Source: Isoetes taiwanensis
Taxonomy: Eukaryota; Streptophyta; Lycopodiopsida; Isoetales; Isoetaceae
DNA: 64,000 nucleotides
Assembly (NCBI GenBank): GCA_021234155.1
Contig: JAJEKV010000008.1
Location: 1,881,521 to 1,945,520, forward strand
Direction: 5' to 3'
A program made the translations under genes and the position numbers. Under the pieces are notes generated by a model. That model saw only the letters and a list, made by a program, of their open reading frames with translations, was not told the DNA's origin and made no database searches. This document shows, in pieces, positions 15,847-50,164 of the stretch; positions within the stretch are counted from its first letter, which is position 1; each line of letters starts with the position of its first letter.

Positions 15847-16190
15847 TACTAATTAAGGATAGCAGGAATCGCCAGCAAAACTTGTACTGTTGTTTCGTGG
15901 ATTTCGCAAAAGCTTTTGACACAGTGCCCCGGGACAAGTTATGGGACAAATTGCAGCAGCTGGCGACCCCCCTTGACTTGCAGAACACAAGATACAGGCT
16001 GTACGATGCATGCTCAGGCTGTATCACATCATCAGGACAGCCGATAATCAATAGTATTGGAGTACGTCAGGGTTGCCCCCTCTCCCCACACACTCTTTGG
16101 CTTGTATGTTGACCAGGTGGAAGATTGGCTTTCTGAGCACGGAGGTGCGGGTGCCCATCTCATGCATCACACAATCCGGCAACTCATATA
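15847..16190 (+). pseudogene. LINE-B 3' half, part 1: RT domain up to the Y-A-D-D motif
   Basis: Reverse-transcriptase sequence with LIKDSRNRQQNLYCCFVDFA followed by KAFDTVPR, then GVRQGCPLSP. A two-base slip in CACACAC after L-S-P moves the frame, which continues as LFGLYVDQVEDWL and IRQLIY. It is cut at 16190 by the giant hAT element, and the next residues A-D-D-V-N-L-L resume at 50165. The left edge is the Helitron 2 end. Confidence 0.88.
16183..16190. other. 8-bp target duplication, left copy (CTCATATA)
   Basis: CTCATATA immediately precedes the left TIR of the giant hAT, and an identical copy at 50157-50164 follows the right TIR. Eight bases is the hAT target-duplication length. In the LINE these bases encode part of L-I-Y before A-D-D. 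Confidence 0.95.
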
Positions 16191-16510
16191 CAGGGATAGG
16201 TTCTATACGTATGAAATTATTGTTTCAGACGTATAAAGTCCAAAAATATGTATTTTTAGAAAAATACGTGATTTTCAGTATTTAATACTGGCGTCGGAAA
16301 AAATTCCGTCCGCACGGAATATTTTTTCGTGTTTAAAGTTTATTTTTCGCTTCGAATCTCTCTCCTCTCCGGCGTAAGCGAAAGTCTTAAGTTCGCTCGT
16401 AGTTTAAACAGAGGTTTCGCTTCTGGAAAATTTTTTTCGCTCACGTAAGTCGCTTTATAAGTTTAAACGCTGGCGGTTTCGCGATGTTTAAACAAGAGGT
16501 TCGCCACGCG
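16191..16510. promoter_or_regulatory. Left hAT TIR and subterminal motif cluster
   Basis: After the TIR come TATACG/ATACGT words. Three copies of the palindrome GTTTAAAC follow at 16402, 16461 and 16486, mixed with GCGTAAGCGAAA and TTCGC words. The right end has the same palindrome four times with the same GCGTAAG-T/C-GAAA context. hAT transposases bind short motifs repeated near their TIRs, so these are likely binding sites (inference). Confidence 0.7.
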
Positions 16511-16599
16511 AACTTTTCTTTATATATACGGAGGCGCATTTTCTTTGTTTTTGCGTAGAAAAAGGTAAACCACCTGCGCCCTCCTTCACAACCTGTGCC

Positions 16600-16890
16600 C
16601 TTTTTCCCGTTTTTTTTTTTTTTTTTTTTTCTTAGTTTTTAGGCAAACCTAGTTAGTTTTTTGTTGTTTTTTATTGTAGGTCTAGGGTTCCTCCATAGTG
16701 AGGCCCTCGCCTGTTGCCCCCCTCCATTGAGGGGCGTGACGATGGTGAGCGTCTCGTTCTATGGTCGAATCCAGACTGATTTTTATGAAAAAAATAATGA
16801 AAAAAAAAAAAAAAAAACAATAGAACAGAAACAATAAAAAAAAGGAAAAAAATAATGAAATAAAAATAAAAAAAAAAAAAAAAGAAAGAA
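16600..16890. repeat. T-run and A-rich run flanking about 160 bases
   Basis: A T run of nearly 30 at 16608-16632 and A-rich runs at 16790-16885 face each other and could fold back. No gene is visible between them. They may be tails of two small retroposed inserts. Confidence 0.55.
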
Positions 16891-17589
16891 TTTGGTTGCC
16901 TACCCTTTCATCGACAACGATGCTTGATTAGGGTAGGGAGTTCTTTAAGAGAGACTAGGTTTTAGTTCTGAGTGATCCTTGGTGGCAAGGACCCTCGCTG
17001 GCGTGCCACAATGAATTGTGCCATGCCGGGGGTGGTGTCATTGTGATGTCGAGGATTGCTAGGGTCAACCTCCCATTTAGGTGTATAGCCCTCTCTTGCC
17101 GCTTTGTTGGCCGGTCCACGCTGATGCTAAAGGTGGGTGTTGTACTCTTATGGAAGGTCAAGAAAATATTTAATGAGATATACCCTATTTTCTCGACGTT
17201 GTTGTTGACGAAAGTCCAACACTAATATAGGGAGTGGCGATATTTCATTAAATATTCGCGGACTTTGCTAGGTGGTCTTATGCAATATGTTCGGGTTGAG
17301 TGCCGCCATTTCTTAATGGAGTCGATGGTGGGTCAGATCATAAGTTAAACTTATTGAAGAGAATGAGAGAACTTGTTAAACTCGTTAGGGTGCCTACAAC
17401 CTGTCAAGCTTGAAACTTAATAGTTTACTAGAATCTTAATGAACTATTTCGACATTATTGACACTCACTAAAGTGGGTTTTTTTTCCCGTGACTTGTAGG
17501 TATTATTCTTTGCTTTTGTCACAGCTTGGCATATCGCTATCTATACACGTTTCTTCTAAAGCTGCTATGAATCCACAAGAGTTAGGCGG

Positions 17590-17715
17590 GCTTAGACTAG
17601 AAGCGTGAGAGCCTCACATGAGCCCTAAAGAAGGATCTAGGGTAGAAGCTGAGAGCCTCACATGAGCCCTAAAGAAGGACCTAGGGTAGAAGCAGAGCCT
17701 CACATGAACCCAGAG
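17590..17715. repeat. Short tandem repeat, about 55-base unit, 2 to 3 copies
   Basis: The phrase GAGAGCCTCACATGAGCCC, followed by TAAAGAAGGACCTAGGGTAG, occurs with small changes at about 17608, 17649 and (partial) 17694. Confidence 0.75.
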
Positions 17716-17764
17716 GTCGAGTCCTCTACTAAGATGCGAGAAAAAGATCAAGACCCCAACAGCC

Positions 17765-19135
17765 ATGGTCCTCCTTAAGACCCGCTTTAATGAATTGGCT
17801 CAGGAGAATATGTCTTTGCCACCCCATCCTGAAGTTAGAGTTGATTACTACAATGATGAAGGATGGCTAGACTTCCACTCAAGTCTCATGAGAGATGCCG
17901 AGAGCTTTTGGGCTTCAATGATAGACGAGAACACGAAAAAGATTGATTCCGAAAAGGTATGCTTGGATAGATGGCAATGTATCCCGTGCAACTGGAAATA
18001 TGATTCATGCAAAGGCAAAATCTAACTAGTCCCCGCTTGAGAGAGTCTTTAAAAGATAAAGGTCGGAATGGAACACGCCTTGGACCGAATCGAAAGCTTA
18101 GAAAAGAAACCCATCAACCCCTCACCTAGTTAAGAAAGTGTTGGCACAGGCTATTAGAGCCAAGCATCCCGGGTGAGACCGATAAAGAGTGGGAAGCAAG
18201 AAAAAGGGCAGATGCCAAGACTATATGGTTTGCAATGGTGGATTCCTCTCAAATAATGAACGAGGACCAGGGTTGGTTCAGGAACATATGGAACGGTGTT
18301 CAAATGCAATATCTTGGGTTCTAGTTTTCTTAAAGACGAACCCTATTGTGTTAAATTTCGTAATGAGGATATCTGCGGTTAGGTACGGCCAAACCTGATG
18401 TGATAGTAAAGGCCATGATGAAAAACATGAGGGAATCACAAATGCAAAGTTAGACATGGCTCTATCATACCGCATTGGTCGCATTAACCGGGTTGGAAAG
18501 AAACAGGTTGATATTTCCCCCTACCGAATGGGGGGTTCTTGTGCATCTCTTTTTGTGCATCATGGAGATAATGAGTTTGCCGGGCATGCATTTAAGAGAT
18601 TAGGGTGTAAGCCTACTATCGAGGTTGACGTCCATAAGCTTGAGCAACGAAAGCGGGGAGTTATATGTTGCTCAAAGAGTGGGTGATCTAACTATGTCGT
18701 TTTTTAAGCGGCTTGCTTAAGCTTCATAAAGAGCACCATCTACACATGGACTTACACCGGCAATGTCTTGCTTCATTTTGAATTTGGGAAAGAGAGAGGG
18801 CGCCTTTAATCCCCAGTCATTTATATTGGTATATGTGTCGGGGAGAAGAACGCCTAATAATAGGCGAGCGCTGGAAGTGAAGCGGTGGGCATACAAAGGC
18901 ATGGATGCTGCTGCCAATAAGGCCATTGAGAATGAAAGGCTTGCCTATCCATACATGCATGATGATTTTGTATTGGGGTCCAAAAAGAGATGGAACTAAG
19001 GCGGTGCACCTCGGGGTAGACTTCGATCTCTTAGGGAAGCCTACTTTATCTATTACCTTGCTGATTTTGCACGCAAGCACTCTTTTCTTGGAGAGTATGG
19101 GTACCAATGAACAAAGCCCGGAGGTTTGAAACATG
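17765..19135 (+). pseudogene. Unrecognised decayed coding region
   Basis: Consecutive plus-strand frames look like protein but shift repeatedly: 17765-18025 (acidic, HPEVRVDYYNDEGWLDFHSS), 18456-18686 (YRMGGSCASLFVHHGDNEFA), and 18763-18999 (VYVSGRRTPNNRRALEVKRW). I do not recognise a family. The order and shared orientation suggest one gene broken by frameshifts inside the giant hAT, which could be cargo or a nested element. Confidence 0.35.
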
Positions 19136-21227
19136 TGCAATTATTTGAAACACGTGTCAATCCCCTATCTAGAATCTGACGCGCAAGTTTGATCTGAACC
19201 AGACTCTTGAACACCATGCGAGAACTCGAATTGCTCTCCAACACATTGCACAAGACCCCAAACTAACCATTGGATTCCTCAAGTTGGGTTAAGGGCGCGA
19301 TCTTGACCAAGCTGGACCAAGTCACGTTTAGCGTGCCATTTATGAGCTCTCTTGTATGCAACCAAAAAAAAATAATCATTGAACAATTGCTTTAAATACA
19401 TTCAATAAAACATCTTTGGCATTCTTATGTATTTATTTTGTTGCACTTGTTTTTTTTATAATTTATAAGTCATATTGAGTTGTTTTTATTTCGCCATTAA
19501 TGTAAAGCCTATCTGCGCAAGAAAACGAACTCACAACTACCTAGTGCCAAACACTTAAGAATGTCTCAACGACCCGGATTCGTCTCATCAAAGAACGGTT
19601 CTTCTCATCAGATGAGAGAGGGGTGATGAAAAACCGCGCATGGAGACTTCTCTATGCGGGACACTTTGAGAACTCGCACCCGGATGGATTTGAATTCCCT
19701 TCTCTACCTACATTGTCGAGGTTAGGGTACAACAGATCTGACGCAGGAACATGCTAGAATGAATGAAGCGCGTGCAAAAGAGTTGTTAAGGTTGAGGGCA
19801 ATGGCGAAGTGGCCAAGAAAGAAGGTGTCACAATTCTGAGAGGTGCATGGAGTTGCATGTGACATGGGCCCGTGGTTGTTGCCCACATGGAGCAGATTTT
19901 GAGGATATCGAGGTACCAATTTAGGCGCCAAATGGTTTGACGTCGGTAGCCCAACGGGAGAGCCGATAAGTATAAGGCATACGACCAAGATCCTCGAAGT
20001 CAAGCTAAAGCTTTGGAGAGGTGGGTGCAAGTGAAAGGAACAATGATAAAAACCATGAATTGACAAGGCGTTTGCCAAAGCAAGTGTATTATGAGATTGT
20101 GAGAGGCGAGCCCGTAAATTATACCCGATAGAAAGTGGAAACAAAAGGAAGCGGCGGTGGTAGCAGCAAAGAGGTGAAGCTCACGGACGATTACGGCGCT
20201 CTTGGTGATGAGCCCGTGACTATAACCTATACGCTTCAAAGATGCCATGAAACTTTTAGATGTAGCGGGGTTGCGGCGGCGAGGTGCGATGGCAGAATGA
20301 GGTAGAACTGAAGGCTCGATTAGAGAATGAAAGAAATCCCTAAACCTCACTCTTGTCGGAGGAAAACTTTAGCGCAAAAGATGGTGCAAATGCTCATGAC
20401 AAGATGGCTGCATAATTATTAACCACGAAGAATCAACTTGCGACTTTGGGTAGGGGAAAATCAGATTGAGAGTAGACAATGAGCACATGCGCACAATATC
20501 AAGAGTCTTAGATTCTGATCCCCTTAGAGTTCCAAGGGCGGGGTATTGCATACCTCCCTCACAGAATACCTATATGAAAGTCGGTGGGGCGATGTAAAGA
20601 GCAGGGGACTTTAGATATTGTCAAATTATTATGCGGACAATCTAACCCAAGTTGGTTGGTATGCCTTAGGGTGTGGACATCGCCCCGCATTTGAGGTGTT
20701 TGTTGGATTGGATGATGGGCAATAGGTTCTATCCAGCAGATGATGATGGATGTATTATACCGAGGCGCCGGTATGTAATGCTCAACCCCGCAATCACGCA
20801 TGCCTCCCTTGCCACCACCTCGGTTTGCTTTCGCGCAGGAGGGATGGAATGGCTCATCGTTCCAATCCCAACGTGAAATGGACCTTTGGAGGGGGGTAGA
20901 AGAACAGCGTGAAGGTGAAGAGGTACCCGGACATTAATCGGTTACACTGCATTCCCGGGCCAGGCGGTGGCGAAGGTATGAACTTGGATGCGGGGCAATT
21001 ACTTAAACCCATGAGCTATCTACATTTATTTTTTTGATATTTTTCCCTAAGATCTCGGATGCACATGAATGAAACCAACGTTCGTTGGCGAGGATTCCTT
21101 TGTCTTAATAAAATTTTGGGGTTGGGTTCTTGCATTGAGTTGTTTGTATTATAGTTAAGTAAAGTAAGTATGTGAGTGAGTCAAAACATCGCACACGCAA
21201 CCTATTTGACATCACGGATCTCATGTC
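19136..21227. other. No supported gene; scattered frame fragments
   Basis: A few short plus-strand stretches look coding (around 19750-19840, Glu/Arg/Lys-rich; around 20280-20420, Glu/Lys-rich) but are broken by stops. The opposite-strand frames at 19722-20350 have no domain that I recognise. Confidence 0.35.
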
Positions 21228-21531
21228 GGGCTTAGTCGCTTTTGTTTGTCTGTTTGATGTATCTAAATTGCCCCTAGGATGAGGTTAGCTCACTCATTTT
21301 AGGTGGCGATTTAGATACATCAAGCAGGAAACTCGAAAAGGGAGTAAGCCTGAATTAGATCGCGACCCTCTTGAATGGTTGTCAGGTCACCAGGCTTTAT
21401 ATTCTCCATGGCAAACAATATAGACTTCTCGAAATTCTTGTTACCTCCTTTAGAAGGAGCGAGCTTTGCTCTGACTCTCTTTTGCGTGTCTCTGTGTCAA
21501 TGTATCTTAGATACTTTGCTAGGTTATATTA
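21228..21531. repeat. Hairpin repeat unit A, left part (interrupted by Harbinger)
   Basis: This is the first part of a unit that continues at 27440 and is repeated at 27980-28560. It begins with an inverted repeat at about 21257-21324 (TTGATGTATCTAAATTGCCC against the complementary GGCGATTTAGATACATCAA). It ends at CTAGGTTATATTA, where the Harbinger is inserted. Confidence 0.85.
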
Positions 21532-21810
21532 GGGTCCATTCAGACCCGTGGTTAAGTTAAGTTAAGTTAAAAAAAAAATTAACTAGCTAGTTTAACTTAA
21601 CTATAACAATCGTATTCGCACCCAAAAAGGTTAACTTTCTATTAAATACTAAACTTAACTTAGGACAAGCAAAATATCTTCACACCCACCATAGTTAAGT
21701 TAATAATTTTAACCTAACTAAACAACATGGGTTGTTGTTCAGACATTGTCCTATTAGGTTAGTACTAACCGAAATGCCTTCACACACGCCATTAGTTAAG
21801 TTACAATTTT

Positions 21811-21998
21811 AACTTAACTAGAATGCCTTCAGACCATTCTAGTTAAGTTTATTGTTTTAAACTTAACCAATTGCCCTCACACATGTTCTAGTTAAGTTAT
21901 ACTTTAACTTAACTAGAATGCCTTCAGACTATTCTAGTTAAGTTTATTGTTTTAAACTTAACCAATTGTCCTCACACATGTTCTAGTTAAGTTATCTA
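21811..21998. repeat. Subterminal 95-base tandem repeat in the Harbinger element
   Basis: Two adjoining copies start with AACTTAACTAGAATGCCTTC at 21811 and 21906. Each holds the inverted words AGTTAAGTT and AACTTAACT. These are probable transposase or SANT-protein binding sites near the left TIR. Confidence 0.8.
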
Positions 21999-22220
21999 CC
22001 TATTTCAAAGAATTTGCTTTATTTACCTACCTTTAGATATAAAATTACAATGGTATAAAGTAATACACCATACTACGTTTTGAGCATACTAAAGAAATAT
22101 AGATATCTTTTTATGGCATAAAGTTATGATCATATGAGTTAGCATACAATTACAATGAGTTCGTATGATGAAAACGTATACCATACATTATAAACTTACG
22201 AGTAAAAGCAGCTTCTAGAT

Positions 22221-23696
22221 TCATGTAAATACCAAGTACTCTTTCAAGGATTCTCGAATATTAAGACCCTCTTGAATCTCAAGACTCTCTAATGTGCCGC
22301 TCTCAACTTCATTATTATCTTCAAGGCCCTCTACCTTAGAAGTTCCACTCTCAACTTCATTGTCATCATCATTATTCTCAACTTCATGATCATTATCATT
22401 CCCTTCAAGTTGTCGAAGCCTTAACTGTTCCAACTCCTCATCCACATTAGCTTCACCAATGTCAATTAGCGGATTGTGAAGGATGCAACATGCATGTGCA
22501 ACTGTTGGAACATACATGGGCTTCATCCGCAACCTTGTGTCAAGACATTTGAACTTGCCTTTTAAGAGCCCAAATGCTTGCTCGATGTATAAGCATCCAC
22601 GTTTCAACTTCTTGTTAAATATAGCCTCTACAAATACAACAATGTTATTTAAATATTCAAAAAGACAAGAGAAAGAACTAACTTCTTACCAGCAATAGTT
22701 AATTGCCTAGGATCCTTTTGATATGGTACCATCAACCATGAAGAGCAATTATAACCATTATCTCCCAACAAGTATGGTTTTAGCTCCTCCCTACAGACAA
22801 TATCCACAGTAGGTGCTTGCAATAATTGGCATTCTTCAATCCTTTTCTTGAGACTTGATTTTCTCATTACTCTAACATCATGTACAGATCCAGAATATCC
22901 ACAAAATATGTCCAGGAATCTTTGCTTTGTATCAGATACCGCTTGCATAATGATGCTGAATCTGCATTTTCTATCGTAGTAATCAAACCCAGCTGGACCT
23001 GCAGGTTGTATGATTTCAAAGTGGGTACAATCGATTGCACCAGCTGCAAAAGCAAAAGTGTTAGTCATGAGTTGTTTTGCTGGTTCATCCTTCACACAAG
23101 ATCATCATATCTATAAGTTATCCTAATTCCATTCAAGCTCATCTCATCCTTGAATTCTATAACTCAAGCATAAATCAACAACAAATTTGACAAAATTGAA
23201 ATCAACAACAAAATTGACAAAAGCATAGATCATGAGACTGAAACTCACCAACATTTGGCAATTTTGAAACTTGTTGAAATCCAACACTGATCTCCTCTAA
23301 GTCTGCACCCAATGGGGATTTTATTTTATGTCCAAACGCTTCCACAATAGCTTTGCAAACTTCCATCACTATCATATGTGCACTACTCTCCCCTATACCA
23401 AATTTCTCCGATAAGATCAGATAATTCGACCCTCTAAACAATTTTAGCAGGCAACATCCTACTCTAACATCCACAGGGATAGCCTTTCTATAATGAGTGT
23501 CTTGCTTTTCAATCTCATTACTCAAGCTGTTGCACAAAAACTCAAAGCAATCCTTTGACATCCTAAAGGTCCTCTTCCACCTTGTATCATCGTAATATCC
23601 CTTTACAAAGCGATCAAACCAAGTAAAGCTTCTTGGCTTCACCCACCACTCGCCTAAACGATGTCCACAAATGTTCTCATACCCTAATGCTTGCAA
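22221..23696 (-). CDS. PIF/Harbinger DDE transposase (HARBI1-like), three exons
   Basis: Exons run 23696-23250, 23043-22690 and 22627-22221 on the minus strand. Donors are GTGAGT and GTAAG, acceptors are TTTGCAG and TTTGTAG, and all phases fit, giving roughly 400 residues. Exon 1 encodes a helical N-terminal region (TFRMSKDCFEFLCNSLS; SEKFGIGESSAHMIV), as in the HTH part of this family. Exon 2 contains the first catalytic Asp in GAIDCTHFEI, then RKCRFSIIMQAVSD, GYSGSVHDVRVM, and the second Asp in LLGDNGY. Exon 3 carries the Glu in YIEQAFGLLKGKF and ends with AHACCILHN and an acidic tail. All three DDE residues are present and no stop interrupts the model. It would cut and paste the element in the nucleus together with the SANT partner. 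The start at 23696 is the first Met; an upstream exon cannot be excluded. Confidence 0.9.
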
Positions 23697-24079
23697 TGTG
23701 GTAACCTCATCTTGTACTAGCTTGCCGATGGATAAATGCTTCAGATATAAAGTTTTTGAAAGACCATCATATAAGGTTTACAAATTATCATTGCATTGTC
23801 ACAAAATATGCAATTGTCAAATCATATTGCAATTGTCAAATCATTGTCACAAAATATTGCAATTGTGAAGGTTTGCAGCCACATTCTTCCTAGAAATCCA
23901 GTAGAGATGTCCTTTTCGAGTCTAACGATCATTGTCAACACCTATAAATAAGATCTTTAGAATTAGTGACTAAAATTCTGAATATTCTTGAATGTATTGG
24001 CTAAGGACTTTTAGAAAATGGACCTGAGAACTGTGGAGGTTGTGGGGCAGCCTTGCTTGCAAAATAGTTTCCCATTTTC

Positions 24080-27000
24080 TCAAATGCCCCTGCCATCACG
24101 CTGATTGAACCAACCAATGTTTGTTGCAATTGAAGTTTTGCTTTTTTCTACTTCCAAACCCTTAGCAAAATGGTCATTCATCATTGCAACAAGCTTATTG
24201 TTGTTATCTTCCATTGTTTTCGTTAATGAGGTGCTGCCACTAGCTCGCCTTTTCCCTGACGACCCTACTTCTCCCACCCCAATGGCGTGGTGACTGCCTT
24301 CACTTGCTGACGTATCAGCAATGTATTCTGGGTCTACGGCAGGCCTTGAGGACTGAAATGAGTCTAGCAGCTTGTAGATTGTTTCATCTATGACTGGAAG
24401 ATTATGAACTTTTTTCATCTCATGTTTGGATAATGAAAAATACTCAGGCATACCGGTCCTTTTGCTGAAATCATGGACCTGTTTGTACTCACCAATAAGG
24501 TTCTCGTATTTCAGCTTGCATCCATCTGCATCCCTATCATCAAAACCTATAGCCGCCATCTTTTCAGAGATTTTTTTCCATCTCAGTGTTGCGGATTCCA
24601 TCCTATCCCTCGCCGAAGACCCTTCTAAAGCTAGCCATTCTTCTTTTTTAAACTCAACAAGCATTCTGGTTTCTTCAAGTATCCAATTCCTTGATCTTTT
24701 CCGTTTTTGCAATCCATCGTATTGATGAGAGGAATCAGAATCTAAATTGACACGCAACTGCTACACAAACAAGATTCCTACTTAGTATTTTTCACCTTTA
24801 CTTTTCTGAATTTTTACCATATAACTAATGAGTTCAAATTATGCTAGCCAAGTGTATGCAACTTAAGAGGAATGGAGCAGCTAACAAATGTGTTGATATG
24901 ATGGCGTGTTATATGCATCTTTTGGTTGCAACAGTGGTCATGGTAGTAGTGCTTTCCCAGGCCACAGGCCATGTGAATGCTGGCCTACATGAATGCCATG
25001 TGAATGCTGGTCTGTACAGTCTACAGACCCACAAGACAGTACCAAATGGATAGTAGATGGAGGAAAATGATGACAGTTTGAATGGGTATTTTTACATGAA
25101 TGCTGGCCTACAAAGTGGCCTACAAAGTTTGAATGGGTATTCAGTTTGAAAATGGGTAGTAGATGGAGGAAAATGATGTAAAATGTGGATGCCATGTGAA
25201 TGCTGGTCTGTACAGTCTACAGACACACAAGACAGTACCAAATGGGTAGTAGATGGAATGGGGTCCGCCATATTTATATTAAAAAATCAATGGGACTAGG
25301 ATGGTGGTACTAGGTTGGTCCAAGGGCAGGGCAGTGGCATAAAGAAAAAAGCTGCCATGTCCATTTGATCAAGGTTTTTTTTTCTAAGGGATCCTGCAAA
25401 CTGTAGACCAGTGCATCGCTTTTGGGGATCCTGCAAGTTTTTTTACATGTTTTTACATATCTTTCTCTCCTGGCACTTATAAATAGAAAAGATTTACGTA
25501 GAACAAATGTATGCCATTTATTGCATGGCAGCAATGCATAATAGCTTTCTGCAGAACAATGTAGGCTTACAGACAAGCAATATAGAACTGTATGACATTA
25601 GTCATCTTCTGGTTCGTATCAACTCTTTCACATACCTCAATCATGTGCCACCTATCTTGTGGCTCAGTATAATCTAGTAGTAGTGCATGGTATCAGATCC
25701 ATTTGATTGTTCTTAAGGGGGTCTAGCTAACAGCAGAGATATAACAGCAGAGATATAACAGCAGAGAGATATAACAGCAGACATATCTTTTAAGCAAGGC
25801 AAGACAAGATAATTTAAATTCAAAAATTATGATTGAAATACCTGTTCATCTCCATCTGCATGGTCATTCAATCCATGTCCTCCACATTCAGCATGCCCTC
25901 CATGTCCGCAAAGATCTCCACGCCCTCCACGTTCCTGCAAGTATATGATATACATGAACAATGAAATATAAGCTCAGAAATATTTGCCAAATATTTGACT
26001 AGAATTCTTTGAGAACAGCAAGGAGAGGAGATTCGAATTTGATCACTTTTAACACCAACACATATTTCAAGGATGTTTCAAAGTTTGAAAAGGTAATGGT
26101 TGGTTAGTACAAACTAGCAAATCTCGTTGGAATAGTGTATGTTGCTAAAAAATGGTTGGTATAACCTCTACTCATTGGCTGAGAGATCTGATACTCCCAA
26201 CCAAATGTGCTTGCATGAGTGAGATGGTTGAATAAATGACGTACTTCCAGTTGGAAAAGAACAATATAGGCTTTGGAAATTAGTTTTTCGCAATGAATAA
26301 TGCTAGCCTGTCACGAACGTCAAATTATGAGCGTGGAGTGTAAATAGATCGGTATGGAAGGCCATGGTAGCATAGATTTTTAGGAAAGCAAAGGAATTTC
26401 AGAAGTGTTCTTTCTTATCAAAGAATGGCTGCAAGATGTTGTCTAGTGGTGAACTCAGCTCGTTGTACATGCACGAGAAGACTGGAGTTAAGTTTTGATG
26501 ATGTTTTATGAAGGAATTGAACTGTATTGCAGCTGAAGGAAGCTGCCATTGCCGCTGCAAGGAGGTGATATCAATTTGTGAAGATCATTGTGAAGGGATA
26601 TGTTACTACTGCTTTAACTGTGCATGATCAGGCTGAAGATATTTGTGTGGCATGACAATGAGAAGGCAGCATTGGGGGAAACATATGGGGGAGATCACAA
26701 GGATTGCTGCACCATCGTTCCACTGTCCAGCTGCTGTCAAAAGGGAATTGTCTGAGCAGCTTTGCTAATTGACAAAACATGTGCCCAAGCAGTAGTTTAG
26801 AGTTATTAAGTTCTGGTGTTTGGATTCAGATCTAGAGTGGTTTTTTTGAGATCTGGAGTCGAGAAAGCACTTGGGTTGCTAGCGTTTTGTCTGTTGCTGC
26901 TAAATATTTGACTAGAATATGAGCTCACATGAAATATGAGCTCAGAGATACTCCAGGGTTAGAGCTCCAGTTTCTCTAATCTCTTCAATGCATGAATGCG

Positions 27001-32570: not shown

Positions 32571-32575
32571 ATTAT

Positions 32576-40689: not shown

Positions 40690-40905
40690 GATAGTGTTGA
40701 GTCAAATGATTGCCATGGCGCCATTTACGAATATTGTTTGATATAATGACCATAGCGCCATTTGATCCAAATCACACCTATGAATGTGCCATAGGTGACT
40801 TGATCAAATGGCCATGGCGCCATTTGATCCAAAACACCTTTAATTAAATGGCGCTTTTCATGGCGCCATTTGATCCAAGTGTTCACCGTTTACCGGCCAT
40901 TTAGC
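40690..40905. repeat. AAATGGCGCCATTT palindromes, cluster 3
   Basis: Four copies of a C-A-T-G-G-C-G-C-C-A-T-T-T core lie within about 170 bases (near 40717, 40753, 40818 and 40862), separated by TTGATCCAA words. Confidence 0.8.
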
Positions 40906-43030
40906 TCCAAATTTGGACCAAAATTTATACATTTGTACTAAATACCATTTTCGTTATTTTTTGCTTATTTTCCTCTATTTCATATGTTCTCGAAAGTGTC
41001 GCTTGCTTGATTGAAACAGTTTAATTTTCCCCCCATTACAACCTATTTCGGAGGGACAATTGTTGCCCTGGGGACATATTTTGAATAGAACCACTCTTCA
41101 TGGGAAGGAAATAGATCCTTCAAATGTAGCAATGAGGTCACGCTTAGTCCGCGATCCCATCGACAGAGTTTCCAGCCCCGAGGGGCGGATAACATTGGTG
41201 AAGCAAAGAGGGCACATTCATTCAAAGGGCCTAAGAGGGATGTAAAACCAAATGAGTGGCCCTCCTCAGGTGAAGATACGCCTTCTTAGATCCCTCAATT
41301 TGCCCTCTTCACAAGAGGATTCATCTAGTAGTCCATCCGCCAAGAGAGGCTCACGGACATCGCTTCGCCATCGCGGGTGAACCAAGCAACCGCGCTAACA
41401 AATGAAGAAGACGAGATAGTAGAGGAGATTGAGGTCATGAGAATCTAGCTGCCCGCCTTGGTCTCCGTGTTGTTTAAGCCCTCAAGATGAGAGATGCCTA
41501 CTACCTCGCAATTGATCTACTAGGTTTGCCATGCTACATTCTTCACTCCTCAAGACGGATCTAAATATTCTGGAGGCTAATATAGTCTTTAGTGATCCTC
41601 GATGCTATAAACGATGAGTTCTTGGGTGTATCAAAGGTCCGACTTTCAGTGGGGTAACATAATAGATCCAACGGAAACCAAAAATATCGTGTCATGTCAT
41701 GCTTGTGCTGAGAGGCCTATAGCTAACAGTCTAGTAAACTTGGGAGACCCATGCTGTTTTGCTTCATGATGGTAGGACAGTTTCACAAACATTTACAAGC
41801 TCTTGCTGCTCTCGAACATGATGATTTTAGAAGTTGGTGTTGGAAGTTTATGTTGAGAAGCTAATTCAAGAGGAAAAGGAAATATACATATGTGAAGAGG
41901 GTCGGGGAACCAATGGGGGGATGGGTAAGGAGGAGAGAGGATGCGCAGCTTCAAGGCAATTAAAGTGATCTAAAAACCAACATGCTGCAAGGACTTAATG
42001 TGTCAAAAAACTGAGCGACGACAGTATATGTGCCTTAAGAAAAGAATTTTATTCTCAATCAAGCAGCGGTGCGATTACGGCTTTTTGATGTGTTGTAACT
42101 AGTGCTGTACAGGAAGTCGGGCCGAAAGTAGTGGTGGTCTGCGGAGTGGAGTGTCGCTAATTTCCGCAAATGCTGTGGTTTTTAGGAGCGTCACGTTTTA
42201 TAGTTGGAGAAAGAGGTTGAGTTAGGTGGAAAACGCATGGTATCTGGTAATACAGCTCTAAGAAGCCTAGATCTGGTGACACTAGCTACTGAAAAGTGTG
42301 TGCCCGATACCTTCATTAGTGAGAATGCAGAGCATTCCACATAGAAACAAAGGAAAGGATGATATGAGGAGAATGTTCGGTAAACTTCCCTTCCATAATG
42401 GAAAAGAGTATATATATGAGAGGGAGGTGGGGTGTGGTGGAAAATTGACAGGAAAGAAAATCTTGCCCTCTTTTTTACAATATTTGGAAGAAAAGAGTTT
42501 CCAGGGCGTATAGCAAAAAAAAAAAAGATTCTCAAGTGTAACATATGTGTAGTCATCAAGCCCGAAATTGGAAAAAGAACAAAAGATATAAGGGAGAGGC
42601 AACCTTTTCAATTCACCCAAGGGCGGGCACATATGTTGGAACAACGTTCAGTAGGAGTCAATATTGGCATTGGCGTTGCATTATCACATTCAGTCGAAGT
42701 CACCCCCTGTGATAATACATGATAAGATGGATCGAGTCAAAACACTCACACCAAGAAAGTCACCATCTCTCAAAAAGTCTCCGCTTGGGAGAGGAGATCA
42801 GCTTTGAAGAGCAAATGACTTGACAGAGCATTGACACATGGTCATGGTGAACTTATGGCCATTTCTCTCTTGATCTTTGGAGGACACCAAAACCTTTCAT
42901 GTTGGATCACTTTCTAGGATCCTACACTATCTTGGGAGTTATGGGAAGAGACAAGTGTGGTGTGATTTGTGTGGGAAGCGTAACTGGCTACGGTTGCAAA
43001 ATTGATGCAAGCCCTTCTAAAAGATACTAG
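40906..43030. other. Decayed sequence upstream of the DUF7869 relic
   Basis: Short plus-strand frames only. This would be the place for the upstream part of the DUF7869 protein, but I cannot trace it with confidence. Confidence 0.35.
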
Positions 43031-44287
43031 GCCAATCGCAACATAAACTAGTGGAGACACAAGAGATGCCTTCATCTTCTAGTGCCAAACTTAGAAGGCT
43101 TCAATCCTCTTCCCTCTAAATCTCTACTACAGTTGGATAATGCATGGTCAAAAATAAAAATAGATATGTGTTCTCCTACCTCTCTTATTTGACATGGCTT
43201 AAGGTATTCGATGAGATTCAAGGTTGGCTTCATGATGGTTGGGCACACTCATGGCGACGATATTGATGCATTGTTTGGGAACTTTTCGGCGTTAATGAGT
43301 TCATCGGATGCTCTAACTTTGCACGAGTTGCTTTACTTGTTTAGCAAGTGCAATGCAAAGTCTCCTGTTCCATATTTTGTGGATGAAGTTCAGTTGGAAA
43401 GGCTTTGTCAAGGGATATATCCCGATAAAGACCAGCGTCTAACGAGGCCATACCGAGGCCATTGCTATTCCGATTTAAAATGGATGGAAAATGGCCCATT
43501 ATGCAATATAAGATCGGACCAACCCATAAAGAGTGGATTCAGGAAAATGGAATAAGAATGTGGAAGGAGGATGAAAATGGTGAGCCAAAGCGTTACCAAA
43601 GGGGTGCCTAAAATATCCCTCAAAGGAAGACATTGAAAGATCTCCACACGGCTTTGCGACTGGCATCGGCGCAAGTACACATAGCATTATGGAATTCCTT
43701 GCCAAAATCGGGGAAGATAGTGTGTTTGCACGGCGGTTACAAAGCAACTATGGATTCTTGGAGCGAGATTCTTTTATGTTTGGAAGATGTATCTCGGGGC
43801 GACCTCAAAATGATAACTTTTGGTTGCGTGCAAGGCAAGAACCTCTACAAGTTGCATTTTACTCGGAGGGTCGATGAAGCATTTGTTGCTTGTAAGACCT
43901 TGCCCACCATATTGTGGGCCAGCGGATGGGCGTCGGTGTTGCCTATGGATGAGTTCGATCCTCATGCACATGTTACTGAAAGGTATGTTTGTTTTAGTCC
44001 GACCTGGAGGCGATGAAACTCCAACGTGGTTGGGCTTTCTGAAGAAGATGCCATCCTAGATCGAGTCTACCAATTATGGTCACATTTATGTATCATGGTG
44101 GATGCACTCGTTGGTTATTGACTATACAGGTTGCTTAACTAAGCGTTGGCGACCCAATCCATCAGATCCATCAAGGTATGAGAAGTTAGATGCCATACAT
44201 TATGCATGGGATGCAAATGGCAAAAGACCGAAGACTGTTCCGATTCCAAAATACATTGTTGACATGTGGGGACATAGCATTAGCTAA
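43031..44287 (+). pseudogene. DUF7869-type transposon-associated protein, frameshifted
   Basis: The plus strand encodes PLPSKSLLQLDNAWSKIKNR, then a shift, then RFKVGFMMVGHTHGDDIDAL followed by F-G-N-F-S. In the family these are the blocks Q-x-D-N-x-x-x-x-N-K-N-R and F-x-x-V-G-H-T-H-x-D-I-D. Further frames (43633-44016, 44102-44287) keep the same direction. The family is found in plant and animal genomes as an uncharacterised, integrase-like part of mobile elements. The extra Asp in T-H-G-D-D-I-D and the shifts suggest a dead copy. It is embedded in the giant hAT between the two hAT transposase parts and so may be one of the insertions that split them. Confidence 0.65.
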
Positions 44288-44935
44288 AAGCTCTCAATCT
44301 AGGTCATGTTCTCGATAATCATGTATGTAATTTCTTTTGCTATAATACTTAAGCATTTTGAACAATTAATGTCGTTATTCGATACATCTAATTTATGCTT
44401 ATACTAACATCCTTACATCTATTATAATAGGTGTTTAATACACATCATTACATCGATGCACACACATTATTGATGGCATACATATAATTTAGATGCACAT
44501 ATTATTGATGGCATTATAGAGTCGATGATTCACTCATCATCAATCCACCTTTATTGTGATCGCATTCATTTCGTAGGCATGGCTCGGGAACCCAAAGAAG
44601 ATGGATCACAACACGAGTAAGGCGGGGCAATCACACTCCACGACCTATACGCTTTGGATTGTAAGTAAGGATCCAGCTTAACACCTTTCATTATCGTGAT
44701 TAATATCATTGTAGCTCATGGAGCAAAGAATGGTCTCAAACGATCATCATAAATATTATAAGCCATGATGGGAGATGAATGACTTACCGAATGGAGCTGC
44801 TTTTATAGTCGTTATAGAATTATTGGTATAATACTTCAGCATTATTGGTATTATCGTTGAGCATTATTATTATTATCGTCGGCATTATTGGTATTATACT
44901 TCAACATTATTGGTATTATACTTCAACATTATTGG
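44288..44935. other. AT-rich, no supported gene
   Basis: Contains short repeats of GCATTATTGGTATTAT (44820-44930, about five copies) and no coding signal. Confidence 0.55.
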
Positions 44936-45510
44936 ATTCGTAGCTATAAATTCTTTTACCTTGTTTTCACTTCTCACTTTTCATCCTTGCTTCTTGCTCC
45001 TTCATATTCCTTGTTCCTTGATCTTCTTGCTACTTGATCTTCCTTGTTCCTTGATCTTCTTGCTACTTGATCTTCCTTGTTCATTGCTTATGGCTACTTG
45101 ATCTTGATCCTTGTTCCTTGCTACTTCATTCCGTGCTCCTTCCTACTTGATCTTGTTCCTTGCTCTTGATCTTGCTCTGCTACTTGATCTTGATCCTTGT
45201 TCCTTGCTACTTCATTCCGGTGCTCCTTCCTACTTGATCTTGTTCCTTGCTCTTGATCTTGCTACTTGATCTTGTTCCTTGCTACTTGATCTTGATCCTT
45301 GCTTCTTGCTCCTTGATCTTCCTTGTTCCTTGATCTTCTTGCTGCCAGATCTTCCTTGTTCATTGCATCTTGCTACTTGATCTTGATCCTTGTTCCTTGC
45401 TACTTCATTCCCGTGCTCCCTGCTACTTGATCTTGTTGCTTGCTCTTGAACTTGCTACTTGCTCTGCTCCGTGTTCCTTGCTCCGTCGGTGATCCTTGCT
45501 TGCTTTTTTA
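44936..45510. repeat. Minisatellite of TTGATCTTG / TTGCTACTTGATC words
   Basis: About 570 bases made of variants of CTTGCTACTTGATCTTGATC, CTTGTTCCTTGCTACTTCAT and TTCCGTGCTCCTTCC, with higher-order repeats of roughly 90-130 bases. Confidence 0.9.
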
Positions 45511-45779
45511 AATGATTGGACCCAATCCTCCACAGGGCTACTCCAGAAGGCCTGCAATAGGGTATTTTTTAAGCGCCCTATATTTTTATAGGGCCCGAAA
45601 CAATCAAGCTACTGCCCATGTAGGATAAATAACTTGGCGTAGTTTGGCTGGCGATATTTTGCATCTTCTTGCTAAGATGGCGTGGCTGAATTAGCGCAAC
45701 CATGAAATTTTTATTTTCCTACATTAATAGATTGGCTATGAGCAAATTTGTGTTATTTAAGATAGGAACATGCTTTGGT

Positions 45780-46005
45780 TTCCCCAAATAATACATTCAA
45801 ATTGCATAGCCTATTTAACATCATCCAATTAAGTGTCACCTATTTAACCTATTTAGATCGCATAACCTATTTAACATCACCTAGTTAGATTGCATCTAAA
45901 CATATTTAACGAAATGAATATATCCAACCAATTTAACCTATTTAACATCACCTAGTTAGATTGCATCTAAACATATCTATCAAAATGAATATATCCGACC
46001 TATTT
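45780..46005. repeat. Tandem repeat, unit about 70 bases
   Basis: Copies of CCTATTTAACATCACCTAGT followed by TAGATTGCATCTAAACATAT occur near 45862 and 45938, with a shorter variant before them. Confidence 0.8.
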
Positions 46006-46127
46006 AATACATAATGAAACATCTTTCTTCACGAAAGACATGGAAATCGTGGAATGAATACAAATCGAGTGCTTTCTGCAAATGACAATAAAATATAATA
46101 TTAAAATTATCATCCCATTCATATTCA

Positions 46128-46208
46128 TTTCATATTCATATTCATATTCATATTCATATTCATATTCATATTCATATTCATATTCATATTCATATTCATA
46201 TTCACATT
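46128..46208. repeat. (ATTCAT)n microsatellite
   Basis: About 12 perfect copies of a hexamer ATTCAT. The alternating Tyr/Glu frame on the minus strand is a by-product. Confidence 0.95.
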
Positions 46209-47775
46209 CACATGAATAACGAAACAATTGCACCGAGAAAGAACATGAAAAAGACAGGGCTTCGACATGGTAGAATAAACTAAACTTGTGTGAAAGGGTG
46301 GTTTTACGATGCTAGCTCGGTCAAATTAAAAAGTATATATGAAACCCTAATTCTAGAGGATTACAAGTGGCGATTCTTAGATGGACATGTGGCGAGAAAT
46401 GTAATATGGCCATCCCCTTACCCATTCAAATTTACCTTGGTTTCCTAATTGGCTACCTCGATAAGTTCTTTTCCGCAGCGCAAAAATCGAATTGGCCACA
46501 CCCTATGCCTAGCAGGATTTAGTAAATATTGAATTGGCTACTAAACAAGTAAAATGTACAAATTAATTATTTTGAGCTGGCTACTACCCCCTTCCGGTCG
46601 GGCATGAGCGTGTATCCTACTCTGGTGTAGCCAACCATTTCTGAAAAAATATGAATGTGTGGCCAAGCCCCCGCAGGAACCACTAAAAATACCCCCGGCG
46701 AAGCATGCATGGCGATGCAATGCGGCTGGAATGGATGAGCTATGGGACCATTTCTTGGAGTGGAGGTTGCGCCCAGTCCCCACCAAGGAGCTTACAATGG
46801 AGTTGATCAACTTCATTCTGGGCGATTTGATTGTGGTCATGAGCCAGCGATGGAAATTAATCCATCCCCAGATGTTATAGGAGACTTGCAATGAGGGAAT
46901 GCTTGAACCCCCTCCTTATCACGGGCCGAGATGCTCAGCAATTGAGGCCTCTTCTTAAAATCTTTGGATATTTAGCACACTCTCTGGATGCATACATATC
47001 GAGAGTTCATTCATGAAATTTCTAAGGGACGGATGTATGGCCTTATTAGGGTGTACTACAATGAGTACAACGGTTTTTGTGGAGTTGGGTCCGCTCTTCT
47101 TCCGTGAGTATTATCCCCGTGGAATTACTTTTTCTAATGACTAGGTACCCCATATGGTGGGAAGAATCAGCATGGGATGGCGTGAGCTCTTGACTCCTAA
47201 CCGATCGTGGGTTAGACCTCGCTGACCCGAAGGGGAAAGGGAAGGGGAAGGGGTTAGGAACACAGGGGAAGGTTACTAGGGACATACATAGTTCATACTT
47301 TTGGTCTCTATTGTGTTTGGAAGTTGGTATATGATCACAGGTGTTATTATGTTCTCTAAATATTCATGTATGTATGATACACGGGTCTTTGCGTGTATAG
47401 AACCCACTGCATAAGGTCTATGATACAGTCTTGTACGCGTGTATACAACCCACATAAGGTCTATACAACCCCATAATAAAAAATTCCGGTTTACTAAAAA
47501 TTTTCCCATTATAATGAAATTGTGCTTTGTAGAAAGGATTGAATGGAGTGCCAGCCCTCCCGGACCTTTCAGTCTTGCCTTGAAGAATCAAAGGGCTTTG
47601 ATGGCATGACAAACAGGTTGCATGCACTTGACAACATTCTTTCGCCTCTCAAAATGTCTCCCTTCCAAGCATTTCGAAAGGGTGGCGAGCTTGCTGCCGG
47701 TGTTTTGAAACATTTTTTTTCCCTTACGCCTCCTCTCCCATTCAAAAGAACTCGTATGATTGAAGGTTGAGATAA
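46209..47775. other. No firmly supported gene
   Basis: A 73-codon plus-strand frame at 46659 (GMDELWDHFLEWRLRPVPTK) looks protein-like but I do not recognise it. The minus strand between 47775 and 47418 might continue the hAT gene, but family residues are not visible. Confidence 0.35.
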
Positions 47776-49027
47776 TCAGTCATGACACCTAAGCACTCTT
47801 TCAAGACAAATATAATTGGAACCAAACCGAAGTCTGGCCAGGGATTCATGAGTGCTAGGGCCTTCCGACGCAATGACTTGTATATGGCGTAAATTGGCTT
47901 CTTTGTGATGAATTTCCTCGAGGACATGCCTTTTGAATGGGATCTTTGAACCAAGTGTCTTTGTGAAAACCAGTCCTTCAAAGAATAAGTTCGAGGGCAA
48001 TGGCATTGGCGGTGGTCGCGTGCAATCCTGGAAATTCAGACTCAACAATTCACCCGCTAATTTACAATTAGGCGCGTTGTCCATTACGACCGAAATATTC
48101 TCTTGACCCCAAAACTCTCTATCACAACCTTTGTTTTGAAAAATCAATCTCCTATGACTTGGTCGGGTTTGATTTCTACGGTTTTCAAGAATACTTCCCC
48201 GGATACGGTCATGAAATTTATAAGATGGTTCTTGTTTACATTGCTCCAACCATCGGGTCACTAGTGAGGCTGAACCTCTCGACCATTTTCCCCGCGTATT
48301 TCATCCACCATTTTGTTATTGACATGTTTGTATGAAGGCAATCTAAAAGCCGGTCCTGCTTTGGCAACTTCACGGAAGGCTTCTTTCATTGCTTTGTGCT
48401 CCAAAATATGTGGAGACAACCCTAAGCATATAAAAATGCCTCTACAACCTTCAATTCGCGTCTTCTTGATTTGCTCGATGTTAAGCACCGGTCAACCCTC
48501 ACGTTGCTTAGTCTCGTCTTTCCACTATCTCAATTGTCTCTACCATTCTTTTTTTCCCGTGCTTAACCCTCCTATCGACCCTAGTCCGCCCTCTGGTTGG
48601 TACATTGGCCGCAGGAAGGGTGGTGTAATTGATCTCTTCTTCTTGGCATGGTGAAGGTCCTTGGATATCCCTTGGCGTGTTCTTCTGCTGCTATTCTTTT
48701 TTTTAGACCCAACACTTCAAGTGCATCTTGTCGTATGTCGGCGGATGTCGTATATGTTTGCACCCCAATTTTAGGATCCCGTAAAGATGAGCTCATTATT
48801 CTTGTCACGGATCCATTTATTGACGTGTACCCACAAAATATGCATTGCCACTCATTCTGACCAAATTCCTTCACAAATCCCCACTCAGGACCTCTCTTTC
48901 GACCACCAGTATTTCGACATATAATTCTTCCACGTCTTTGTTCCAACCCGTGGGTTCCATGACAGCTAGCGATGGCGCGCACCCTAGACGATGATGCATG
49001 ACGCCGGGCGGCCGGATGTAGATGCAT
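47776..49027 (-). pseudogene. hAT transposase, N-terminal part: BED-like finger and DUF659 (decayed)
   Basis: On the minus strand from 49027: EWGFVKEFGQNEWQCIFCG, then a BED-like pattern whose His position reads Ser, and GVQTYTTSADIRQDALEVLG. DUF659 follows after a break (AKAGPAFRLPSYKHVNNKMV at about 48390). The conserved block FWGQENISVVMDNAPNCKLA then comes at about 48100. RFGSNYICLERVL at about 47830 matches the 'T-R-F-x-x-x-x-x-x-L' block. The gene starts about 1.1 kb inside the right TIR and reads inwards, the layout expected for the transposase of the giant element. Frameshifts and the lost finger residue make it inactive. The C-terminal half is at 33.9-34.8 kb. Confidence 0.82.
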
Positions 49028-49525
49028 GGCGCCCGGCTACCGATGTAGATGCATGACCAGCTGCCATCCCTGCTGCTATATCTAAAATTACTGTCTCTGC
49101 TCTGGTATGCTAAAGGGTAAAGACTCCTTAATCGTCCGAACTAAAGGCCGACGTCTATATACGTGAAGGAGCAAGCTCACTACGCATATGTTACATCAAC
49201 GTCCCGTTCGAACGTAAGGAGTGAAGGACGAGGAACCTATAGGTCTCTAAGGAACGGGTAGGAACCCAAAGGTGGAGAAAACTACGTGAAGGAGGAATCT
49301 CACTTCACAATTCCGTCGCCCCCGACGCGTAAAACCCACACCTCAAAGGGTGACCGTTTCCCAAAGGTATGTGGACTCGACACGGTAGTCAACGTTAGGC
49401 TTAATTCTAGAGCTAAACACATTTTTTCTTATATATAATATTTCACCCGCACAAAATAGACCAAGCGATTGGCCAAAAGTTTTTTCCCTTAGCAAAAGCG
49501 CCCAATATGCTTTGCAAAGTTTTTA
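49028..49525. other. Upstream region of the hAT transposase gene
   Basis: No gene. Likely leader and promoter region of the former transposase, between the BED-like exon and the subterminal motif cluster. No promoter element can be assigned with confidence. Confidence 0.45.
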
Positions 49526-50156
49526 GTTTAAACAAAAACAAATTGTTTAAACTTCTACAGCGAAGTTTCTTCAGCGTAAGTTTAAACAGGTTATTTCCTT
49601 TCTGTAGTTAAAATTTCGGCGTGGCTCTTTAAACTACGCGAAGATATTTTCAAGTAAAATGAAAGCATAGTTGATTTAAACTACGCCAAACTTTTTGGTT
49701 CGCGATAGTTTAAAACAACTGTTTAAACTTTTAAAGAAACCCGGCGTAAGTGAAATAGAAGCTCATTATGTTTTACACATGTCCATCTGTGAAGGAAACT
49801 CATGTGTGGAAGCAACGAGGGACGCGTGAGGCATTGCTTACACAACATCTTTAGGCCCCTCTAATACTTGGAATCCTCAATGCAAAAATACAGGCATGAA
49901 GCATTGAACTGCAACAACTCCTAGTGCATGCTATCTTAAAGGATAAGCCATATCATCGACTCTTGCTGCCAAAATTTACAAACTTCATAATGCAATTCTA
50001 GTCCACTGAGGCGGTATTTATCGTAATTGGCCATCACAATAATATTTAGACACACGATCGGTTAGATCGGGTTTATGATCATGTGAACCAAGAGTATAAC
50101 ATTAGCGAAAAATACGTATTACGTATAAAACGTATACAGTATTGAACCTATCCCTG
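49526..50156. promoter_or_regulatory. Right hAT subterminal motif cluster and TIR
   Basis: GTTTAAAC occurs at 49526, 49545, 49580 and 49721, with near variants (TTTAAACTACG twice). GCGTAAG and TTCGCG words match the left cluster. The TIR (50144-50156) ends at the CTCATATA duplication. Confidence 0.7.
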
Positions 50157-50164
50157 CTCATATA
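50157..50164. other. 8-bp target duplication, right copy (CTCATATA)
   Basis: Identical to 16183-16190 and directly abuts the right TIR of the giant hAT. Confidence 0.95.

What the first reader, a model, noticed from the sequence alone, without database searches (positions are those of the whole stretch)
16183..50164. A 34-kb hAT element interrupts the reverse-transcriptase active-site motif of a LINE
The outer ends CAGGGATAGGTTC and its exact complement, flanked on both sides by CTCATATA, define one insertion of 33,966 bp. The LINE reading frame stops at I-Y before the left end and resumes with A-D-D-V-N-L-L after the right end, so the insertion split the catalytic Y-A-D-D block. Most hAT elements are a few kb, so this is one of the larger examples one could expect, and its boundaries are supported by TIR, TSD and host reading frame independently.
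Basis: partly seen in the sequence, partly recalled or inferred. Interest (0 to 1): 0.92.

Follow-up and report, generated by a model that had tools for sequence, protein, structure and literature searches.

The report
hAT transposon carrying a kinase gene
The 34-kb interval is a hAT "jumping gene" of about 10.5 kb, swollen by three other blocks that most likely came later, and its family carries, beside the transposase, a predicted protein-kinase gene and a predicted RING-finger gene that selection has kept and that would act as helpers of the element.

Summary
The size claim does not. Relatives in the same genome are 10,326, 10,393 and 8,217 bp, each with exact 8-bp duplications. The window copy has three extra blocks: a 5,908-bp PIF/Harbinger element with a TTA duplication, an unassigned block of about 4.7 kb, and a 12.8-kb block with inverted ends that splits the transposase gene. 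About 10.5 kb remain.

The novelty lies inside. The hAT carries two more genes, convergent with the transposase: a protein kinase and a RING-type protein. Codon-position tests indicate purifying selection on both, with flat noncoding controls. The kinase has 85 scored places. Of 20 sampled, 14 have the hAT end near the predicted place; 3 of 4 far-side probes hit the transposase side. One transposase-bearing copy showed no kinase in 19 kb. A kinase in a transposon is known from Oxytricha TBEs, Tc1/mariner; my paper searches listed none for hAT. Function is untested.

The parts
16183..16190 (+). left target-site duplication CTCATATA
50157..50164 (+). right target-site duplication CTCATATA
16191..16203 (+). 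hAT terminal inverted repeat, end near the kinase gene
   Evidence: same 13-mer 1184+1185 times in the genome, control 15+9
50144..50156 (-). hAT terminal inverted repeat, end near the transposase gene
16191..50156 (-). whole inserted interval, 33,966 bp; strand given is that of the transposase gene
15850..16190 (+). LINE reverse-transcriptase fragment left of the insertion (degenerate); outer edge approximate, by eye
   Evidence: translation
50157..51340 (+). LINE continuation right of the insertion, resuming A-D-D-V-N-L-L; outer edge approximate, by eye
   Evidence: sequence
17567..19331 (+). decayed protein-kinase gene of the hAT (edges mapped from C157)
   Evidence: with the ATG read; 30 of 34 alignment gaps to C157 are not multiples of 3; P0001 tblastn match
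19549..20811 (+). decayed gene 2 of the hAT (RING-finger protein in the intact relative)
   Evidence: mapped from C157; relative L090:3795-4937 with RING
47529..48870 (-). N-terminal and middle part of the decayed hAT transposase gene
34112..34734 (-). C-terminal part of the hAT transposase gene, cut off from the rest by the 12.8-kb block
34177..34476 (-). hAT dimerisation domain (PF05699)
   Evidence: E 1e-9, 38.5 bits > 21.4
21532..27439 (-). nested insertion 1: PIF/Harbinger element, 5,908 bp, TSD TTA on both sides
   Evidence: uninterrupted site GGTTATATTACACAAAGA in C157 and C22; coordinates
22224..23101 (-). DDE_Tnp_4 transposase pieces of the PIF/Harbinger element
   Evidence: 2e-17 and 4.9e-10
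24083..24760 (-). Myb/SANT-like protein of the PIF/Harbinger element
   Evidence: 2e-10
28834..33551 (.). nested block 2, about 4.7 kb absent from C157, C22 and C25; kind not determined, no clean ends found
34735..47528 (.). nested insertion 3: 12,794 bp with 30-bp inverted ends (3 mismatches), no clear target duplication; splits the transposase gene
   Evidence: C157, C22 and C23 are continuous there; coordinates; DUF7869 ORF inside

Best explanation
The interval is a hAT transposon of about 10.5 kb that duplicated CTCATATA in a LINE, carries three other blocks totalling 23.4 kb that most likely inserted later, and belongs to a family that encodes, besides its transposase, a predicted protein kinase and a predicted RING protein that likely help the element by modifying proteins of its transposition complex or of the host. 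SHOWN: the ends, the duplication and the restored LINE frame; collinear relatives of 8.2-10.4 kb with exact 8-bp duplications; continuous sites for nested insertions 1 and 3; two accessory genes convergent with the transposase; a third-codon-position excess of change in them between element lineages; the hAT end in front of the kinase in 14 of 20 sampled copies. INFERRED: the element moved by ordinary hAT cut-and-paste with transposase from an intact relative or, before it was split, its own; the three blocks came after the LINE insertion; gene 2 is spliced; the kinase is active, because P-loop, beta-3 lysine, HxDLxxxN and DxG-like (DWG) motifs are kept in the open copy L090; the RING protein is an E3-type ligase. 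MOST LIKELY MECHANISM (untested): kinase and RING protein are made from the opposite end of the element and act in trans as post-translational helpers, phosphorylating the transposase or a host factor and marking a host repressor for turnover. The window copy is dead: all three hAT genes are broken in it.
For: Ends, TSD, frame. Family: 13-mer 1184+1185 against 15+9. Of 12 end pairs that I chose from the listing, 9 have identical 8-bp flanks, 2 differ at 1 of 8, and 1 is no pair. Collinearity and nested blocks. C25 full-length, 8,217 bp, TSD ATTCAAAG, transposase plus kinase. hAT domain. Kinase: L090 ORF of 564 aa, PF07714 36.2 bits > 23.1 and PF00069 32.4 > 31.7; homologue P0001 PF00069 43.2 > 31.7. 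RING: PF00097 21.3 > 21, PF13639 26.9 just under 27.3. Selection: third-position mismatch C157 against C22 and C25 is 0.43 for the main kinase stretch, 0.45-0.46 for its C-terminal part and 0.52 for gene 2, against 0.15-0.27 at the other two positions (p 4e-6 to 3e-17); three noncoding controls, two of them overlapping, are flat in the 11 comparisons printed (p 0.18-0.97). C157 against L090: kinase pS 0.78 and pN 0.22 (380 codons), gene 2 0.75 and 0.25 (134), RING part 0.79 and 0.27 (101). Copy number: 85 places scored of 1614 candidates. Kinase-side TIR: 14 of 20, 11 exact. Far-side probes: 3 of 4 hit, two in transposase ORFs and one in their leader, in the convergent orientation.
Against: 6 of 20 sampled kinase copies show no TIR in the 1.1-kb stretch fetched, and 1 of 4 far-side probes hit other DNA. 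C46b has transposase and gene 2 but no kinase and no matching end pair in the 19 kb fetched; C23 keeps only a piece of the kinase. C22 and C25, used for the selection test, are decayed themselves (40 of 45 and 29 of 35 kinase gaps are not multiples of 3), so the signal predates them. Shorter transposase pieces range from clear to flat in the same test (p 0.004-0.54). No single copy with all three genes open was seen; L090 has open kinase and gene 2 frames but a Copia element inside, and its far end was not reached. Solved-structure matches of the kinase are weak: best E 0.0011 for C157 and 0.0008 for P0001 (all kinases), none at E <= 0.01 for L090. The RING match lacks the last of eight expected ligands and scores barely above one cut-off. 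The transposase has no Pfam hit above cut-off besides the dimerisation domain. A genome-wide transposase search did not complete. The kinase diverged more at third positions than the transposase (0.43-0.46 against 0.26-0.29), so the modules may not share one history. No function was tested.
Confidence: 0.78

Rival explanations
1. One reading: one unusually large hAT of 34 kb that transposed as a whole with all its contents.
For: One TIR pair and one TSD bound the whole interval. Other TIR-bounded intervals of 14.4 kb (exact TSD) and 25.2 kb (TSD 7 of 8) exist.
Against: Collinear relatives of 8.2-10.4 kb lack the three blocks. Two blocks have inverted ends of their own and uninterrupted sites in relatives, and block 3 splits the transposase gene. 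The 14.4- and 25.2-kb intervals share only about 150-260 bp at each end with the family and, apart from the end itself, gave no match over 60 bp to the window insert.
Confidence: 0.06
2. The kinase and RING genes are captured host gene pieces that hitch-hike (Pack-type capture) and do nothing for the element.
For: Plant DNA transposons often carry gene pieces (recalled). Many of the 85 places have stops. The kinase module is more diverged than the transposase. One transposase-bearing copy showed no kinase in 19 kb.
Against: Both genes show third-position excess between element lineages while noncoding parts do not. Position and orientation agree in C157, C22, C25, the window and the probed copies. 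Open frames of 520-621 aa without stops persist at several places.
Confidence: 0.13
3. The two ends belong to two separate elements that happen to bracket other DNA.
For: The genome holds over a thousand copies of the end in each direction, and one sampled pair (C46, 32.7 kb) was indeed two unmatched ends.
Against: Identical 8-bp duplications and an exactly restored LINE frame; the interior at both ends aligns to opposite ends of one 10.3-kb element.
Confidence: 0.02

Closest known systems
Autonomous hAT elements of the Ac/Tam3/Tol2 type
   Same: Short TIRs starting CAGGG, 8-bp target duplications, transposase with a hAT C-terminal dimerisation domain, many small copies made of the two ends.
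   Different: Those encode a transposase only (recalled; 4.6 kb for Ac stands in the PMC3260210 abstract as listed). This family is 8-10 kb and has two further genes on the opposite strand.
Telomere-bearing elements (TBE) of Oxytricha, Tc1/mariner
   Different: Another superfamily (Tc1/mariner, not hAT). There zinc finger and kinase are in one protein; here kinase and RING are separate proteins. No sequence relation was tested.
PIF/Harbinger and Mutator-type elements with accessory genes (Myb-like second protein; MURB, VANC)
   Same: Plant DNA transposons that carry a second gene (recalled); a Harbinger with its Myb-like protein sits inside this very hAT.
   Different: Their accessory proteins are DNA-binding or anti-silencing factors (recalled), not kinases or RING proteins.
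ToxhAT, a 14-kb fungal hAT carrying a gene
   Same: A hAT-named unit longer than usual because of what it carries (abstract of PMC12506042 as listed).
   Different: A cargo-moving unit; here the extra length of the window copy is three nested blocks, and the accessory genes recur across the family.

Membership tests
hAT superfamily | short TIRs with CAGGG-type ends | tested here: met
   13/13 bp; 1184+1185 genomic copies against 15+9
hAT superfamily | 8-bp target-site duplication | tested here: met
   window exact; of 12 chosen pairs 9 exact, 2 with 7 of 8, 1 none; C25 exact
hAT superfamily | transposase with hAT C-terminal dimerisation domain | tested here: met
   PF05699 1e-9 at window 34177-34476 (-); only 14.1 bits, below cut-off, in C157
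hAT superfamily | BED zinc finger and RNase-H-like DDE core | tested here: inconclusive
   no Pfam match in the broken ORFs; DUF659 only 16.2 bits against 34.7
PIF/Harbinger (nested insertion 1) | DDE_Tnp_4 transposase, Myb-like second protein, 3-bp TWA target duplication | tested here: met
   definition recalled
Eukaryotic protein kinase domain | profile match above the curated cut-off | tested here: met
   L090 ORF: PF07714 36.2 > 23.1, PF00069 32.4 > 31.7; C157: PF07714 26.0 > 23.1 but PF00069 28.4 < 31.7
Eukaryotic protein kinase domain | P-loop, beta-3 lysine, HxD...N, DFG-like motif | tested here: met
   by eye in L090: GYGSYGAVYK, YCVKL, HMDLHPGNILL, ICDWGE, DWG in place of DFG; motif names recalled
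Eukaryotic protein kinase domain | phosphotransfer activity | not testable with these tools
   needs an assay
RING-finger E3 ligase | RING profile above the curated cut-off and eight metal ligands | tested here: inconclusive
   PF00097 21.3 > 21; PF13639 26.9 < 27.3; last Cys replaced in L090 (CPMQ); solved RING proteins at best E 0.011
TBE-type kinase transposon (Tc1/mariner) | Tc1/mariner transposase and TA duplication | tested here: not met
   8-bp duplications and hAT domain instead

The most novel reading that the evidence does not exclude
A hAT lineage with a three-gene autonomous unit: transposase at one end, and at the other a protein kinase and a RING E3-type protein that together rewrite host or transposase protein states (phosphorylation, then ubiquitin marking) to let the element escape silencing and spread. 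That would be a phospho-ubiquitin counter-defence module carried by a plant-type DNA transposon and possibly exchanged between transposase lineages.
Probability: 0.35. Interest if true: 0.82.

Novelty: new variant of a known kind. Interest (0 to 1): 0.62.

Why it matters
hAT elements are textbook single-gene transposons (recalled). A hAT family that has kept a kinase and a RING protein, with 85 scored kinase places in one genome, suggests that post-translational control is part of this element's life. Together with the kinase of the unrelated Oxytricha TBEs it points to DNA transposons having recruited kinases more than once, which can be tested with ordinary excision assays. It also corrects the size claim: the 34-kb hAT is a case of nesting.

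Tried and rejected
Rejected: one 34-kb transposing unit; two unrelated ends. Structure prediction of P0001 from a single sequence gave mean pLDDT 45; no fold search was made and no conclusion drawn. Homologues of gene 2 in the 5.8-billion protein set: none at E <= 1e-3 of 584 candidates. Kinase: one homologue, P0001, of 7,996 scored candidates; with P0001 as the query only itself of 7,994 at E <= 1e-5. Rfam: 0 matches at gathering scores. Paper searches around hAT elements with kinase or RING genes showed the top of each list only (20 of 197, 2 of 2, 0, 15 of 57, 10 of 616, 6 of 6, 8 of 72, 10 of 25); I recognised none from titles and the listed starts of abstracts. Only passages of PMC12242761 were read. 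Host species not identified: on Chara braunii gave no evidence and Chara is a guess only. Not obtained because the genome search did not complete: unbroken LINE site, transposase and gene 2 genome searches, copies of nested insertion 3.
Full report
OBSERVATION. The configuration is unique in the window, and 40 random first-order sequences gave none. Joining the flanks with one CTCATATA gives ...IRQLIYADDVNLLAYTPEDMQ..., so the insertion does fall in the Y-A-D-D block of a LINE; that LINE copy carries other stops and a frame shift as well. The ends belong to a large family: 1184 forward and 1185 reverse copies of the 13-mer in a 1.66-Gb, 1110-contig genome, against 15 and 9 for the reversed control.

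SIZE. I chose 12 end pairs from the 100 places listed, from 121 bp to 33 kb. Nine have identical 8-bp flanks, two differ at one of eight positions (C1, 25.2 kb; C23, 5.3 kb), and one (C46, 32.7 kb) is not a pair. Two of the nine, C157 (10,326 bp, CTTGGGTG) and C22 (10,393 bp, CAAAGGAT), align collinearly with the window insert (C157 over most of its length). A further copy, C25, is 8,217 bp with ATTCAAAG on both sides and one mismatch in one end. Against them the window copy has three extra blocks. Block 1 (21532-27439, 5,908 bp) has inverted ends GGGTCCATTCAGACC / GGTCTGAATAGACCC, a TTA duplication, DDE_Tnp_4 pieces and a Myb-like ORF, and both C157 and C22 show the uninterrupted GGTTATATTACACAAAGA: a PIF/Harbinger element. 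Block 3 (34735-47528, 12,794 bp) has 30-bp inverted ends with 3 mismatches; C157, C22 and C23 run straight through, and it separates the hAT dimerisation domain (34177-34476) from the rest of the transposase gene (47.5-48.9 kb). It shows no clear target duplication, and about 6 bp of the relatives are missing there. Block 2 (about 28834-33551) is absent from the relatives, but I could not define its ends. Subtracting the blocks leaves about 10,543 bp. So this is a nested hAT, not a giant one. The order of events is inferred: nothing shows directly that the blocks arrived after the LINE insertion, and copies of blocks 2 and 3 elsewhere could not be sought.

ACCESSORY GENES. The half of the element away from the transposase is not spacer. 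C157 carries there, on the opposite strand, a 508-codon ORF. Its 48 matches among solved structures at E <= 1 are all kinases (one a kinase chimera), though the best E is only 0.0011; PF07714 scores above its cut-off and PF00069 below. The one protein found in the 5.8-billion set is a 580-aa kinase, P0001, at 44% identity over 83%. A genome search with the C157 ORF gave 91 matches at 85 scored places of 1614 candidates, some with no stop over 400 or more residues and many with stops. One copy, L090 (C1049), has an open kinase frame of 564 aa with kinase motifs in place, followed by a gene whose 381-aa ORF has a stretch that looks coiled-coil (by eye) and a RING finger. Both domains pass a curated cut-off, the RING only just; one of eight RING ligands is missing; and the L090 kinase found no solved structure at E <= 0.01. 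L090 has an exact near end. A Copia element and a 740-bp miniature copy with exact ATGCATGG duplications lie inside the fetched stretch, and its far end was not reached.

ARE THEY PART OF THE hAT? From C157 I predicted where the TIR should lie upstream of each kinase and fetched 1.1 kb there for 20 of the 85 places, chosen over the range of identities and favouring long or open ones. In 14 of 20 the TIR is there, in the expected orientation, with at most 2 mismatches (11 exact, one with 1, two with 2), 13 of them within about 160 bp of the predicted place and one about 420 bp off. The reversed control pattern never did better than 3 mismatches; 6 of 20 showed none. For 4 of these I fetched 700 bp 8.2-8.9 kb from that end: two lie in the transposase ORFs and one in the leader next to them, in the convergent orientation, and one hit other DNA. 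Of 37 further single ends sampled for 2.4-3 kb (20, 17), three reach transposase sequence (L038, L045, L054), four show leader sequence beyond the end (L037, L042, L053, L061), five are short TIR-bounded elements (L031, L040, L048, L056 exact, L067 with 7 of 8), and the rest show at most the two ends, counting matches over 130-150 bp. Of the ends followed further, L038 became C25, with a kinase. L045 (C46b) showed transposase and gene 2 but no kinase in 19 kb, and L037 showed no kinase in 11 kb. C23 keeps a 105-residue piece of the kinase. The miniature copies examined are the two ends of the long element with the middle gone or replaced.

SELECTION. With C157 as reference, mismatches to C22 and C25 pile up at third codon positions in the main kinase stretch (0.43 against 0.17-0.23), the kinase C-terminus (0.45-0.46 against 0.15-0.20), gene 2 (0.52 against 0.22-0.27) and, for C22, the RING ORF (0.50 against 0.25), as they do in the two longest transposase ORFs (0.26-0.29); shorter transposase pieces range from clear to flat (p 0.004-0.54). 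Three noncoding controls, two of which overlap, are flat in the 11 comparisons printed (p 0.18-0.97) (in the main kinase slice begins on a third codon position, so its first column is position 3). C22 and C25 carry many non-triplet gaps, so they are decayed copies and the signal predates their decay. The window copy against C157 shows little or no such excess (p 0.03-0.92), as expected of a decaying copy. C157 against L090 has near-saturated synonymous change (pS 0.75-0.79) with pN 0.22-0.27 for kinase, gene 2 and RING part. C25 pieces against L090 give dN/dS of 0.34-0.52. So both proteins appear to have been useful to the element lineage for a long time.

HOW IT LIKELY WORKS. The element moves by hAT cut-and-paste (family knowledge). 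The kinase and RING genes are read from the other end towards the transposase. The likeliest role is post-translational help, on the transposase or on a host repressor; this step is inference. The window copy has all three genes broken and is a fossil.

COMPARISON. [quoted passage not shown] That is the closest functional parallel, in another superfamily. My searches of the open library showed no hAT with a kinase or RING gene in the rows listed; the library is incomplete, the lists were cut, and I judged from titles and listed starts of abstracts.

OPEN. The kinase module is more diverged than the transposase at third positions (0.43-0.46 against 0.26-0.29), which may mean module exchange. 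The LINE empty site was not obtained.

Noticed in passing
window 43193-43552 (+), inside nested insertion 3: ORF with DUF7869 (PF25273, 4.3e-10, 39.9 bits > 26). With the 30-bp inverted ends it hints at a 12.8-kb DNA transposon whose transposase may be a DUF7869 protein. No paper in the library holds that name.
   Followed up: partly
window 6170-7707 and 12453-13025 (+): Transposase_21 (tnp2) and DUF4218 pieces, CACTA-like; the CT-rich stretches at 7675-8978 and 11635-12192 recur inside the TIR-bounded elements C2 and C152.
   Followed up: no
L009-L011 (C1, 25.2 kb) and L020-L021 (C152, 14.4 kb): TIR-bounded intervals with 7 of 8 and 8 of 8 bp duplications that share only about 150-260 bp at each end with the hAT family; nested insertions or captured DNA.
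   Followed up: partly
window 27570-28563: Cluster of direct and inverted repeats of 60-120 bp in the middle of the hAT, present in C157, C22 and L090 as well; perhaps internal binding sites or recombination-prone repeats.
   Followed up: no
L018 and L016 elements: Kinase third positions differ more (0.43-0.46) than transposase third positions (0.26-0.29) between the same lineages; possible exchange of the accessory module.
   Followed up: no
window 2287-2551 and 5012-5276: 265-bp direct repeats, 96% alike, 2.7 kb apart; possible terminal repeats of another element.
   Followed up: no
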